A stretch of 7,399 nt of DNA from JALSIF01 sp026981635 [NCBI: bacterium] (GTDB lineage: Bacteria > 4484-113 > JALSIF01): NCBI GenBank assembly GCA_026981635.1, contig JALSIF010000315.1, positions 1 through 7,399 on the forward strand, in the 5' to 3' direction. Under the pieces are notes generated by a model, which saw only the letters and a program-made list of their open reading frames with translations, did not search any database and was not told the DNA's origin. The position numbers and the translations under genes are program-made. Shown here one piece after another: positions 3,838 through 6,916 of this stretch; positions within the stretch are counted from its first letter, which is position 1, and every line of letters starts with the position of its first letter.

Positions 3838-4593
3838 CTAGCCCTCACCCAGGGTCTTGGTCAACTTGCTGGCCAGCCCCATCAGGTATCCGCCACCCCC
3901 CACCAGCAGGACCACCAGCACCCACACGGTCAGGGTCAGCCACCCGGGACGCTCCACTGCCACCGCCGGCTGGCCCACCCCAGGGGGAGGGGCGGCAGAC
4001 TGGGGAACAGGGGGAGGGGAAGTTGCCGCGGGCTGAACGGGGGAGGAAGCCTTACTCTCGGGTGGACCACCATCAGGTGGTGCTGCTTCCCCGCTTGCTG
4101 TTTCAGCCTGCCCCGCCGAAGCTCCATCAGCAGTGGGTGGCTCTGCGGTCTGCACTCCCCTTCCCATCATGCCACCGGCGGGTCCCATTCCGCCCATGCC
4201 CATTCCGGCCCCACCCATCATGCCTGGCGTGATGCGGATGCGTTCCTTGGCCACCTCATCGCCTGAGCGAAGGATGAGCTCATAGGGGCCGGGGCGAAGG
4301 TCTTGGGGAAGGGTGATCCTGAGGGTGAAATCCTCTCCTCCAACTTTGTACATCCCCAATGGGATCTCTCCCCGGGTCCCCTTAATCACCACCTCAACCG
4401 ACTTTGCCCCCTCAAACCCGACCGCTTCAATGGCCACTGTGTCCCCTGGTGGCATCTGGCTGTGGCTGAGCTTCATCATGGGTCCTTCACCGTGGGCCAG
4501 AGCGGGAGGAGCAGGGAGGTAAATCCCCAGAAGGCTTAGGCCTACGGCCAGGGCAAAAGCTCCAAGCATCTTTTGACTGAGAAGCCTGTCCAT
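3838..4593 (-). CDS. Exported, membrane-anchored Ig-like protein with Met-rich segment; possible copper binder
   Basis: I do not recognise a named family for this 251-residue protein. A signal peptide (residues 1-33) ends in PPALA, so likely cleavage leaves His34 as the mature N-terminus, followed by GEGPMMKLSHSQM. Residues about 42-122 form a beta-rich Ig-like domain. Residues 124-146 are glycine/methionine-rich with seven Met (125, 126, 131, 133, 136, 142, 143). A Pro/Ala/Ser-rich linker runs to about 215, and one transmembrane helix (about 218-240) anchors the C-terminus. The domain should therefore face the outside. N-terminal His plus clustered Met and His is typical of periplasmic copper proteins such as CopC and PCuAC, but sequence identity to them is not evident. 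It follows the cytochrome b gene by 37 bases, with its own GAGGTGA ribosome site (4601-4607), so the two are probably co-transcribed. The inferred role is copper handling or electron-transfer support beside the cytochrome. Confidence 0.8.
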   Translation of the reverse strand: MDRLLSQKMLGAFALAVGLSLLGIYLPAPPALAHGEGPMMKLSHSQMPPGDTVAIEAVGFEGAKSVEVVIKGTRGEIPLGMYKVGGEDFTLRITLPQDLRPGPYELILRSGDEVAKERIRITPGMMGGAGMGMGGMGPAGGMMGRGVQTAEPPTADGASAGQAETASGEAAPPDGGPPESKASSPVQPAATSPPPVPQSAAPPPGVGQPAVAVERPGWLTLTVWVLVVLLVGGGGYLMGLASKLTKTLGEG

Positions 4594-4631: not shown

Positions 4632-5678
4632 TCACATCCCCAGGTGGCTGGCGGGTGGGCTAAGCGCTCCCCAGACGGTGAAGAAGAGCCAAAGCAGGAG
4701 TCCCACGACAAGGAGCAGGCGGGTAAGTTTTATGCGGAGCTCCTCCTTGAGGCTGGGCAGGTTGGCCACCGCCAGGAAGGCAAGCAGAAAGACCACCATG
4801 ATGGCTGAGCCCACCAGGATGCCCATCGCCCCCATCCAGTTTTCCAGCTGGTAGAAGACCAGAAAGGGCAAGGGCGGCTTGGTCGCCTCAATTCCCTCCA
4901 CTGCCCGGTTGAGAAGCACCGGCGGGAAATAGGTCCCAAGAATGATGAGAACTCCTAAAGAAAGCAGGCTTAGGCCACCGAGCTTAATGGCGTGGGTGTA
5001 GAAGGGAACTTTGGGCTGGGGCTTGCCCTCAAGTTCTGGGGGAGTGGAGATGCCGTGGTGGCGGATGTAGAAGAGGTGCAGGCCGAGCAGAAATAGCAGG
5101 ATCAGGGGGAGGATGGAGATATGCCAGGTGACCACCCGCTGGAGCATCTCGTTAGTGAGGGTAAGCTCCTCGCTTACCGGATAGGTGAGTGGACCAAGTA
5201 GGTCATTTACCGCCTTGAAATGTTGCAAAGCCTCGTATCCCTCCTGGTCCCACTTGAGCACCGTGCCGGTGAAGTAGAGGTTGATAAGCACCCCGAGAAG
5301 GAGCAGTCCAACGATGAAGTTTATCCCCCGCGGATAACGCAGGGCTAGGGTCCACACCACCCGGGCAAGGTGGACGATCACCAGCGCCACCGCCAGGGTT
5401 GCGCTCCAATAGTGGACTCCCCTCACGATGGAGAGCCAGGGAATGTCGGCGCTGATAGCAAACACACTGTCCCAGGCAAGGTCACTTTGGGGGGCGTAGT
5501 ACTGGGAGAGGATGATGCCGGTGACGATTGCCCAGACGATCAGCCCCAGGGTAAGACCTCCCAGGCTGTACCAGAGGCTATTGGCGTGTGGTGGGATAGG
5601 GTAGCTAACGGCGTCGAAGCCCAGAGCTTTAGCCGTGGAGAGATTGGAGAGATTTGAATGGCTGTCTTCCTGCTTCAT
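4632..5678 (-). CDS. Cytochrome b of the b6 type with fused C-terminal (subunit IV-like) part
   Basis: This 348-residue integral membrane protein has about seven helices. The first four (about 36-60, 88-111, 119-138, 184-205) form the diheme b6-like core: His89/His103 and His186/His201 are the expected heme ligands. The second pair has 14 intervening residues, as in cytochrome b6, not the 13 of mitochondrial cytochrome b. Motifs WLSIVRGVHYWSA, FTGTVLKWDQEGY and IRHHGIS also follow b6. The last three helices (about 232-252, 283-305, 317-337) correspond to subunit IV. Two features differ from classical enzymes: the Qo motif PEWY reads PPLP (268-271), and the Cys that attaches heme c(i) in b6 is Ser38 in the YSLGG motif. 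It should carry electrons between quinol and an unknown partner; no Rieske or c-type cytochrome gene is in the window. Its promoter contains a CsoR-like operator. A weak GGTAGG (5690-5695) lies 11 bases before the ATG. Confidence 0.88.
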   Translation of the reverse strand: MKQEDSHSNLSNLSTAKALGFDAVSYPIPPHANSLWYSLGGLTLGLIVWAIVTGIILSQYYAPQSDLAWDSVFAISADIPWLSIVRGVHYWSATLAVALVIVHLARVVWTLALRYPRGINFIVGLLLLGVLINLYFTGTVLKWDQEGYEALQHFKAVNDLLGPLTYPVSEELTLTNEMLQRVVTWHISILPLILLFLLGLHLFYIRHHGISTPPELEGKPQPKVPFYTHAIKLGGLSLLSLGVLIILGTYFPPVLLNRAVEGIEATKPPLPFLVFYQLENWMGAMGILVGSAIMVVFLLAFLAVANLPSLKEELRIKLTRLLLVVGLLLWLFFTVWGALSPPASHLGM

Positions 5679-5718: not shown

Positions 5719-5747
5719 CATATATACCCCTCTGGGGTATTTGTCAA
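5719..5747 (-). promoter_or_regulatory. Sigma-70-type promoter of the cytochrome b operon
   Basis: On the minus strand TTGACA (5742-5747) is a perfect -35 box and TATATG (5719-5724) a good -10 box, separated by exactly 17 bases. Predicted initiation is near 5712, giving a leader of about 34 bases. The -35 box includes the TGA stop (5744-5746) of the upstream gene, so this promoter can uncouple the cytochrome and Met-rich genes from that neighbour. Confidence 0.75.
5724..5740 (-). promoter_or_regulatory. CsoR/RcnR/CstR-like operator, perfect 7-3-7 inverted repeat
   Basis: ATACCCC-AGA-GGGGTAT is perfectly symmetric in its 7-base arms and almost exactly fills the promoter spacer, overlapping the first base of the -10 box. 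AT-flanked C4/G4 inverted repeats of this form are the known operator class of the CsoR family, whose copper-sensing members repress copA/csoR promoters until Cu(I) binds; persulfide-sensing CstR sites look alike. Repression by steric block of RNA polymerase is the expected mode. No csoR gene is in the window, so the regulator would be encoded elsewhere. The similarity is judged by eye from the general motif. Confidence 0.65.
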
Positions 5748-6367
5748 CCCCCTGGGGGCAAGCCTGCCTTCTCCGCCTTGACCAGAAGCTTGATCAGGGA
5801 GAAGGCAGGGTCTTTAAGGTCAGCGGGAAGCATCACCTCCCAGTGGCGGTTGAGGTAGCTTTTGAGGTAGCTAATGACATCACCTAGGGAAATGGCGATA
5901 TACCCGGGGGTTTGGCTGGGGAGGTAGGAGCCGAAGGCGACCAGCCTGAGGTGGCAGGTCCGGTCGTGGAGACAGATCTCGGCATCACCCCGGCTGAGGA
6001 GTCTTTCCACTTGGTGTTCCACCTCCTCCTGTGGGCAGCAGCCAAAGCGGAGCAGGGCTGCCCGGAGCACGGCTGGTCGTCGGGCGGCTGCGTTTAGTTC
6101 GGCGCGGCCCTCCTTTACTTCACCTACCAGCATCACCATCCGGTCGTCGGGCAATCTGAGTAGGGGATCGGTCTCCCGAAGCTCGCTTTCCTCTCCCCGT
6201 TCACCCACAATTGCCCTCGCCGTGCCGGGAAATCTAACCGCCAGGATGTCCAGGTCGGTTGCCTCCCGGTATCCCTCCCTAGTGTGCTCAATGATGGGAT
6301 ATTCGGTTACCGTGAAGAAGCCGTTGAGCCTAAGGTAGGCTTGTGCCAGTGCTACCGCGATGTCCAC
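5744..6367 (-). CDS. Uncharacterised protein with PD-(D/E)XK nuclease-like core
   Basis: This 207-residue protein starts at GTG 6367, preceded by an excellent Shine-Dalgarno AAAGGAGG (6377-6384) with a nine-base gap. Its order of motifs fits the PD-(D/E)XK fold: an N-terminal helix with Glu22 (FTVTEYP), a strand with Asp38/Asp40 (ATDLDILAVRF), then Glu83-x-Lys85 in VMLVGEVKEGRAELN. These would be the metal and catalytic residues, so it may be an active nuclease. The C-terminal half is helical and includes a CC pair (110-111) and LVAFGSYL. It is predicted to be cytosolic, with no signal peptide or membrane helix. I recall similar short, unnamed proteins in bacterial genomes but no experimentally defined function. 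It is divergent from the ferritin gene and 65 bases upstream of the cytochrome gene, which has its own promoter. Confidence 0.75.
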   Translation of the reverse strand: MDIAVALAQAYLRLNGFFTVTEYPIIEHTREGYREATDLDILAVRFPGTARAIVGERGEESELRETDPLLRLPDDRMVMLVGEVKEGRAELNAAARRPAVLRAALLRFGCCPQEEVEHQVERLLSRGDAEICLHDRTCHLRLVAFGSYLPSQTPGYIAISLGDVISYLKSYLNRHWEVMLPADLKDPAFSLIKLLVKAEKAGLPPGG

Positions 6368-6487: not shown

Positions 6488-6916
6488 ATGGCAGTAAGCC
6501 GAGAGCAGCTCATTAAGGTGTTGAACGAAGACCTGGCCAAGGAGCTTGGCACCATCATCCGCTACAACGATCAGGCGGCCCGTATCAAGGGTCTCAAGGG
6601 CCATGAGGTGCGTGAGCTTCTGGTCATGGAGATCCAGGATGAGGTGGGGCATGCCCGTTATCTGGCTGACAAGATCGTCATGCTGGGGGGCGAGCCAACC
6701 ATTGAGCCCTACAAGTTCCCCCGCAAAGAGACTCTGCGGGAGATGCTGGAACTAAACATTGAGGTTGAGCTGGCCGACTCCAAGGCTTACTATGACCATG
6801 CCAGGATGGCGGAGGAGTTTGGTGACTACGACCTCATGGTCCAGTTGGAGAACATGGCCTCTGACGAGAGACGCCATGCGGACCAGATGATCCGCCTGCT
6901 AGAAGGATTGGAATAA
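6488..6916 (+). CDS. Ferritin-like diiron protein (bacterioferritin-related, heme Met absent)
   Basis: This 142-residue four-helix-bundle protein carries a complete ferroxidase ligand set: Glu19, Glu52-x-x-His55 (QDEVGHAR), Glu94 in helix C (Glu92 is an alternative) and Glu127-x-x-His130 (SDERRHAD). The numbering nearly coincides with bacterioferritin (Glu18, 51, 94, 127; His54, 130). The residue after Glu52 is Val53, where bacterioferritin has the heme-ligating Met52, so heme binding of the Bfr type is not expected. It is slightly shorter than the usual 155-160 residues. The likely role is cytosolic iron oxidation and storage, or peroxide detoxification as in Dps-like proteins; a cage cannot be proven from sequence. 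The start is set by GGAGG (6476-6480), seven bases before the ATG. It is divergent from the nuclease-like gene and seems monocistronic. A palindrome in its leader is a candidate control site. Confidence 0.85.
   Translation: MAVSREQLIKVLNEDLAKELGTIIRYNDQAARIKGLKGHEVRELLVMEIQDEVGHARYLADKIVMLGGEPTIEPYKFPRKETLREMLELNIEVELADSKAYYDHARMAEEFGDYDLMVQLENMASDERRHADQMIRLLEGLE

What the first reader, a model, noticed from the sequence alone, without database searches (positions are those of the whole stretch)
5719..5747. CsoR-like operator filling the promoter spacer of a cytochrome b gene
Seen: perfect ATACCCC-AGA-GGGGTAT between a perfect TTGACA and TATATG at 17-base spacing. Known: CsoR-family repressors use such C/G-tract inverted repeats, normally before copper pumps or chaperones. 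Inferred: a b6-type cytochrome and a Met-rich exported protein are under copper (or persulfide) control here, an unusual target.
Basis: partly seen in the sequence, partly recalled or inferred. Interest (0 to 1): 0.75.

Follow-up and report, generated by a model that had tools for sequence, protein, structure and literature searches.

The report
Copper-switch operator before a cytochrome b
A short mirror-image DNA sequence that looks like the landing site of the bacterial copper-sensing repressor CsoR sits inside the promoter of a membrane cytochrome b gene, and the same sequence stands before a copper pump, metal-binding and cytochrome-building genes of this genome, suggesting that copper switches part of the electron-transport machinery.

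Summary
Observation confirmed. ATACCCC-AGA-GGGGTAT (5740-5724) fills the 17-bp spacer between TTGACA (5747-5742) and TATATG (5724-5719), 45 bp before a cytochrome b. It meets the published description of a type-2 CsoR operator. The 17-mer ATACCC-N5-GGGTAT occurs 9 times in this 1.75-Mb draft genome, 0 times read backwards, and once in nine other genomes of the class. It precedes a CPC-type copper ATPase, two Met-rich exported proteins, ccsA-resB (cytochrome c maturation) and this operon; one-mismatch copies precede a csoR, a DsbD-like and a Rieske gene. The genome has four CsoR-family genes, two with Cys-His-Cys copper ligands. New here: this stand-alone cytochrome b lies within 2 kb of P1B metal ATPases in 12 of 67 homologous loci and near CsoR in a Deinococci MAG, and its neighbours are often exported proteins with a predicted N-terminal histidine, as in histidine-brace copper proteins. 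Best reading: a CsoR regulon containing a cytochrome b/copper-protein pair, possibly a quinone-linked periplasmic copper redox or handling unit.

The parts
5742..5747 (-). -35 hexamer TTGACA (also contains the stop codon of the upstream ORF, 5746-5744)
   Evidence: direct reading
5724..5740 (-). CsoR-type (type 2) operator ATACCCC-AGA-GGGGTAT
   Evidence: direct reading; 9 exact ATACCC-N5-GGGTAT in genome vs 0 control; fits published type-2 description
5719..5724 (-). -10 hexamer TATATG, 17-bp spacing
   Evidence: direct reading; not listed by the consensus scanner
4632..5678 (-). stand-alone cytochrome b (348 aa), four heme histidines conserved, PEWY glutamate replaced (KPPW in the family, KPPL here)
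   Evidence: Pfam PF00033; alignment A1; AlphaFold pLDDT 91 and Foldseek to bc1 cytochrome b
3838..4593 (-). exported partner (251 aa): signal peptide, Ig-like domain, Met-rich stretch, C-terminal TM helix; starts 38 bp after the cytochrome b stop
   Evidence: no Pfam or NCBIfam match
4492..4494 (-). codon of His34, presumed first residue of the mature partner (ALA|HGEG), candidate N-terminal copper ligand
   Evidence: His in 18 of 20 aligned homologues, Asp in 2; cleavage read by eye, not tested

Best explanation
The repeat is a functional type-2 operator of a copper-sensing CsoR repressor. Without excess Cu(I), CsoR sits on the 17-bp spacer and blocks RNA polymerase; Cu(I) releases it and the operon is transcribed. 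The operon belongs to a genome-wide copper regulon with a copper-export ATPase, Met-rich exported proteins, ccsA-resB, and probably a DsbD-like gene, a Rieske gene and a csoR itself. Shown: the sequence, its enrichment, the co-marked genes, the csoR genes. Inferred from family knowledge: binding, repression, Cu(I) release. Most likely role of the products (separate confidence about 0.4): a quinone-linked electron conduit in which the cytochrome b exchanges electrons with, or serves, a periplasmic copper protein that binds copper through its N-terminal histidine, keeping periplasmic copper in a manageable redox state or form when copper is high.
For: Sequence matches the published operator type: TAC-X9-GTA dyad, two G/C tracts 3 bp apart, AT repeats 11 bp apart, close to ATATACCCCTNAGGGGTATAT of streptomycete CsoR. 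9 exact copies vs 0 control. Targets: CPC-type P1B ATPase with four YHS stretches and a HMBD, Met-rich exported protein (C123) and Met-rich presumed outer-membrane protein (C5), ccsA-resB, csoR C24 (1 mismatch), DsbD-like C25 (1 mismatch). Two CsoRs keep Cys-His-Cys. At C69, C123 and C287 the right arm runs into a -10-like box (GGGTATAAT or GGGTATAAA). Homologous cytochromes lie within 2 kb of P1B ATPases in 12 of 67 loci and, in L094, near a CsoR (PF02583) and an HMA protein. Signal-peptide-like ORFs beside the cytochrome have a mature His in 27 of 86 cases vs 13 of 320 distant ones.
Against: No binding or expression data. 0 of 67 distant cytochrome b homologues has the exact core within 400 bp upstream of the match, 2 of 67 have a one-mismatch copy; no genome of the same genus or family was held. 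Four of the 9 exact sites stand before genes with no evident copper link (C40, C117, C124, C292). Which CsoR acts is unresolved: C24 sits with a MerT/HMA gene and has Lys where the solved CsoRs have Tyr before the first Cys; C302 has only a wide-spaced imperfect repeat before it. The copper role of the proteins rests on neighbourhood and on a signal-peptide cleavage read by eye; the copper site itself is not shown, and 8 of 17 actinobacterial partners have Asp instead of His there.
Confidence: 0.75

Rival explanations
1. The box is read by a persulfide-sensing CstR-like paralogue, so the operon answers to reactive sulfur rather than copper.
For: The genome has a CsoR paralogue (C146) with Cys-Tyr-Cys instead of Cys-His-Cys next to a thioredoxin-like gene, and one (C33) beside DsrE and TusA genes. 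A one-mismatch box lies before an exported rhodanese (C92). A CsoR-like protein of Thermus controls sulfur oxidation and cytochrome genes (PMC10318464 passages).
Against: The box stands before a CPC copper ATPase and Met-rich proteins and, with one mismatch, before a Cys-His-Cys csoR. None of the exact or one-mismatch boxes is on C146 or C33; C33 has a two-mismatch copy about 1.4 kb downstream of its csoR, and the sequence before C146 has G tracts only. The Thermus regulator uses a different, G-tract-free motif.
Confidence: 0.12
2. The operator is a CsoR site, but the cytochrome b is a respiratory or metalloid-reduction electron conduit (ExtP-like) whose copper control only protects or reshapes the respiratory chain; the proteins do not handle copper.
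For: Best NCBIfam match is ExtP, selenite/tellurite reduction b-type cytochrome (141.6 bits, cut-off 290). ccsA-resB (exact), a Rieske gene and a DsbD-like gene (one mismatch) carry the box, and copper excess raises ccsA and ccsB mRNA in Corynebacterium glutamicum (PMC3140484 passages).
Against: P1B ATPases and CsoR beside homologues and an N-terminal His on many partners.
Confidence: 0.35
3. The perfect repeat in the spacer is a chance or structural palindrome without a regulator.
For: The region is rich in G tracts, e.g. another palindrome CCCCC-T-GGGGG at 5748-5758.
Against: 9 exact copies vs 0 control, each upstream or at the very 5' end of an ORF; Poisson p about 1e-16.
Confidence: 0.05

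Closest known systems
Type-2 CsoR operators (S. lividans csoR and copZA sites; B. subtilis, S. aureus and L. monocytogenes sites)
   Same: TAC-X9-GTA dyad, paired G/C tracts, AT flanks 11 bp apart, promoter overlap; the same genome has a csoR and a copper ATPase with the box
   Different: target includes a cytochrome b operon and ccsA-resB, not only copper pumps and chaperones
Copper stimulon of Corynebacterium glutamicum (PMC3140484)
   Same: cytochrome c maturation genes (ccsA, ccsB) rise with copper
   Different: the passages I saw give no CsoR box for them; here the box is directly before ccsA-resB
Cytochrome b of bc1 / b6f complexes
   Same: fold, four heme histidines, WDQ-x-GY loop similar to cytochrome b6
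   Different: PEWY glutamate replaced by Pro in the family (KPPW), KWDQEGYEA motif, no Rieske or cytochrome c gene in the operon
YcnI / CopC histidine-brace copper proteins
   Same: predicted N-terminal histidine after signal cleavage; in YcnI also a C-terminal TM anchor
   Different: different fold (Ig-like, no Pfam match); second copper ligand unknown
ExtP, selenite/tellurite reduction operon b-type cytochrome (NF040969)
   Same: nearest curated cytochrome b family in NCBIfam
   Different: score 141.6 against cut-off 290; its known operon neighbours were not compared

Membership tests
CsoR type-2 operator | 5'-TAC-X9-GTA-3' dyad | tested here: met
   TAC-CCCAGAGGG-GTA at 5739-5725; definition from PMC3902906 passages
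CsoR type-2 operator | two G/C tracts with 2-4 intervening bases, AT repeats about 11 bp apart | tested here: met
   CCCC-AGA-GGGG; ATA and TAT 11 bp apart (definition)
CsoR type-2 operator | overlaps the promoter | tested here: met
   fills the -35/-10 spacer by reading; promoter itself predicted only and not listed by the scanner
CsoR type-2 operator | copper-ligand (Cys-His-Cys) CsoR in the genome | tested here: met
   two of four PF02583 proteins, C24 and C302
CsoR type-2 operator | same box before copper export / csoR genes of the genome | tested here: met
   exact before CPC ATPase C309; one mismatch before csoR C24
CsoR type-2 operator | box conserved before orthologues | tested here: not met
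   0 of 67 distant homologues with the exact core within 400 bp upstream of the match, 2 of 67 with one mismatch (L063 has 389 and L123 only 5 bp upstream); no same-genus or same-family genome held
CsoR type-2 operator | binding by apo-CsoR, release by Cu(I) | not testable with these tools
   needs gel shift or footprint
bc1/b6f cytochrome b | four axial heme histidines | tested here: met
   H89, H103, H186, H201 invariant in 38 sequences; their role as heme ligands is from family knowledge
bc1/b6f cytochrome b | PEWY quinol-oxidation motif | tested here: not met
   family KPPWxF aligns to KPEWYF; window KPPLPF
bc1/b6f cytochrome b | Rieske and cytochrome c partner genes in the operon | tested here: not met
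   operon is cytochrome b plus the exported partner; one homologous locus, L123, has a Rieske gene about 5.6 kb away
Histidine-brace copper protein (CopC, YcnI/DUF1775) | N-terminal His after signal cleavage | tested here: inconclusive
   His34 after ALA, conserved 18 of 20; cleavage not shown
Histidine-brace copper protein (CopC, YcnI/DUF1775) | CopC or DUF1775 domain | tested here: not met
   no Pfam match; Ig-like domains by Foldseek
ExtP (NF040969) | score above curated cut-off | tested here: not met
   141.6 of 290 bits

The most novel reading that the evidence does not exclude
A widespread, undescribed copper system: a stand-alone cytochrome b with an altered quinol site, paired with a periplasmic copper protein that carries its metal on an N-terminal histidine, forming a quinone-linked copper oxidoreductase under copper-repressor control and often beside P1B ATPases; in this genome one CsoR regulon joins copper export, this unit and cytochrome c maturation.
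Probability: 0.35. Interest if true: 0.85.

Novelty: new variant of a known kind. Interest (0 to 1): 0.68.

Why it matters
CsoR is usually discussed as the switch for copper pumps and chaperones. Here the same box marks a cytochrome b operon and cytochrome c maturation genes, so copper status would directly set part of the electron-transport chain. It also hands over a testable functional clue for a cytochrome b family found in many phyla, with small histidine-fronted partners, for which I found no assigned role.

Tried and rejected
Persulfide control (CstR-like paralogues C146, C33) was considered and ranked lower: no exact or one-mismatch box on those contigs and a copper ATPase in the regulon. 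Chance repeat: rejected by the reversed control and by the nine other genomes. Among the 29, L040 has an exact core inside the cytochrome b ORF itself, and L018 a one-mismatch copy inside the ORF before its cytochrome b; neither was counted. Two of the 12 core matches in the genome (C219 inside an ORF, C306 at a contig end) lack the A/T flanks and were not counted as sites. The eight one-mismatch 17-mers (C20, C24, C25, C69, C92, C117:11340, C270, C284) were all looked at: C24, C25, C69, C20 (DUF302) and C92 (rhodanese) lie before or at the start of genes that could belong; C117:11340, C270 and C284 stand near genes with no evident link; I use only C24, C25 and C69 in the argument, as probable. 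The two-mismatch sites were not studied. Foldseek for the partner gave generic Ig-like domains, not CopC, in the 50 rows shown. Literature: ten searches; in the rows listed I saw no report of a CsoR-controlled cytochrome b of this family or of ccsA-resB under CsoR; only listed rows were seen, and most subscription papers are not in that library. The organism could not be named; its phylum has only 10 held genomes.

Full report
OBSERVATION. On the minus strand the window reads TTGACA (5747-5742), 17 bp, TATATG (5724-5719), and the spacer is filled by ATACCCC-AGA-GGGGTAT (5740-5724), a perfect inverted repeat. The ATG of a 348-aa cytochrome b lies at 5678, and a 251-aa exported protein starts 38 bp after its stop codon. 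The TTGACA contains the stop codon of the upstream ORF, so the operon has its own predicted promoter in a very tight gap. The consensus scanner did not list this promoter, since its rule needs a T at the end of the -10.

MORE THAN CHANCE. The core TACCC-N5-GGGTA occurs 12 times in the 1.75-Mb, 317-contig, 85%-complete genome, against 3 for the pattern read backwards. With the flanking A/T (17-mer) it is 9 against 0, and the nine other genomes of the class hold 1 in all, inside a coding ORF. At up to two mismatches it is 56 against 29, so only the exact and near-exact copies carry the argument. At the rate of the other genomes 0.07 exact sites are expected here.

WHAT THE SITES CONTROL. Contexts were read. 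Exact 17-mers: the window operon; C309, 36 bp before a 1015-aa P1B ATPase with CPC motif, four YHS stretches and a heavy-metal-binding domain; C123, before a Met-rich exported protein; C5, at the start of a Met-rich presumed outer-membrane protein (the operator overlaps its first possible ATG, so that start is uncertain); C287, 76 bp before ccsA, which is followed by resB; C117, before a small hydrophobic ORF (no Pfam match) and an FAD-dependent oxidoreductase; C40 and C124, before presumed lipoproteins; C292, before a cupin. The last four have no evident copper link. Eight further 17-mers have one mismatch. The most telling are C24, 14 bp before a csoR; C25, at the 5' end of a DsbD-like gene (PF02683), another family tied to cytochrome c maturation; and C69 (core exact), before a Tat-exported Rieske-type protein cut by the contig end (18.8 bits, just under the 20.3 cut-off) that follows a b6/petD-type operon. 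C20 (DUF302) and C92 (exported rhodanese) may also belong. At C69, C123 and C287 the right arm runs straight into a -10-like box.

REGULATORS. PF02583 finds four CsoR-family genes. Alignments to solved CsoR and relatives and the sequences show Cys-His-Cys in C302 and C24, Cys-Tyr-Cys in C146, and only the first Cys in C33. C24 has a one-mismatch box; before C302 I see only a wide-spaced imperfect repeat. C24 is followed by a MerT/HMA gene, so a related soft metal is not excluded. Which CsoR acts is not settled.

FIT TO KNOWN OPERATORS. Passages of PMC3902906 define type-2 CsoR sites: two short G/C tracts with 2-4 bases between, AT-rich repeats about 11 bp apart, and a TAC-X9-GTA dyad; the Streptomyces consensus is ATATACCCCTNAGGGGTATAT. 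The window site meets each point. Passages of PMC10318464 show a CsoR paralogue of Thermus that controls sulfur oxidation and cytochrome genes through a different motif, so CsoR-like proteins controlling electron-transport genes are not unheard of.

THE CYTOCHROME. Pfam PF00033; best solved relatives by profile are cytochrome b6 (7e-54) and, over most of its length, bc1 cytochrome b; the AlphaFold model (pLDDT 91) matches bc1 cytochrome b. In 38 aligned sequences the four presumed heme histidines (H89, H103, H186, H201) are invariant, as are H153, H229 and the loop KWDQEGYE. The quinol-site PEWY motif is replaced: family KPPWxF, here KPPLPF. There is no Rieske or cytochrome c gene in the operon. 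The nearest curated family is ExtP, far below its cut-off.

RELATIVES. One scan found 67 loci, from records titled Pseudodesulfovibrio and other Deltaproteobacteria, Nitrospinota, Chloroflexi, Actinobacteria, Bacteroidetes, Deinococci, Spirochaetes, Calditrichota, a Geoglobus archaeon and others, best identity 43%. A P1B ATPase (E below 1e-40) lies in the held DNA of 15 of 67 loci, within 2 kb of the cytochrome in 12 of 67; 7 of the 15 are Streptomyces, so the events are fewer than the counts, and some loci hold little flanking DNA. No matched control family was scanned; the enrichment is judged against my own rough expectation of about 1%. Some of these ATPases carry CPC, others SPH in its place, and some neither by my pattern; one Streptomyces ATPase has cupredoxin and YHS domains. 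In L094 (Deinococci MAG) a CsoR (PF02583) and a small exported ORF starting HGGE stand directly before the cytochrome, with an HMA protein about 2 kb upstream. The exact core box stands 54 bp before a CPC ATPase in the Intrasporangium locus L084. No homologue has the exact core within 400 bp upstream of its match (0 of 67; 2 of 67 with one mismatch).

THE PARTNER. The window partner has a signal peptide ending ALA|HGEG, an Ig-like domain, a Met-rich stretch and a C-terminal TM helix (overall model confidence only pLDDT 74, the domain above 90). In 20 aligned homologues the residue after the presumed cleavage is His in 18 and Asp in 2. Partners in separate BLAST clusters often show the same feature, read by eye: 8 of 8 in the Bacteroidetes-type cluster and 9 of 17 loci in the actinobacterial cluster, the other 8 having Asp. 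A crude automatic test found a mature His in 27 of 86 signal-peptide-like ORFs beside the cytochrome, in 25 of 67 loci, against 13 of 320 distant ORFs (Fisher 2e-11); related loci are not independent, and the strict rule missed cases seen by eye. N-terminal histidine is the hallmark of histidine-brace copper proteins such as CopC and YcnI (passages of PMC8424229, and PMC12537917). The fold differs, so this is a resemblance in mode, not membership.

MECHANISM. Most likely, apo-CsoR on the spacer blocks RNA polymerase and Cu(I) frees it (established for the family, inferred here). The regulon then raises copper export, Met-rich copper binding, this cytochrome b pair and cytochrome c maturation. 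The last fits the copper stimulon of C. glutamicum, where ccsA and ccsB mRNA rise about 3.6-fold (passages of PMC3140484), and the title of a paper on copper damage to c-type cytochrome assembly, seen only in a reference list. For the pair itself I propose a quinone-linked periplasmic copper redox or handling unit; direction of electron flow is unknown.

VERDICT. The more interesting part is the target: a cytochrome b family that keeps company with metal-ATPase genes and N-terminal-histidine proteins across phyla.

Noticed in passing
window 5748-5758: A second palindrome, CCCCC-T-GGGGG, directly upstream of the -35; possibly an extension of the operator region or chance.
   Followed up: no
L004 (G000 C33): A CsoR-family protein that keeps only the first of the three metal-ligand residues lies beside DsrE-like and TusA genes; an odd, ligand-poor paralogue.
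   Followed up: partly
L145 (G000 C24): csoR - MerT/HMA fusion - small ORF without Pfam match: a possible mercury or copper transport operon under a near-exact CsoR box.
   Followed up: partly
L050 (G000 C117) and L055 (G000 C292): The same exact box stands before a small hydrophobic ORF with an FAD oxidoreductase, and before a cupin; roles in copper response unknown.
   Followed up: no
L018:1035-1466: The closest held unnamed-genome homologue (37% identity) also has, just before its cytochrome b, an exported ORF with AFA|HGGGHK.
   Followed up: no
window 6488-6916: Ferritin-like / rubrerythrin protein divergent from the operon's upstream ORF.
   Followed up: no
L119:2281-2754 and L066:4931-5494: Homologous cytochrome b loci recurrently carry a PCYCGC-motif protein (PF13798) and a redoxin (clusters of 9 and 16 loci).
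   Followed up: partly
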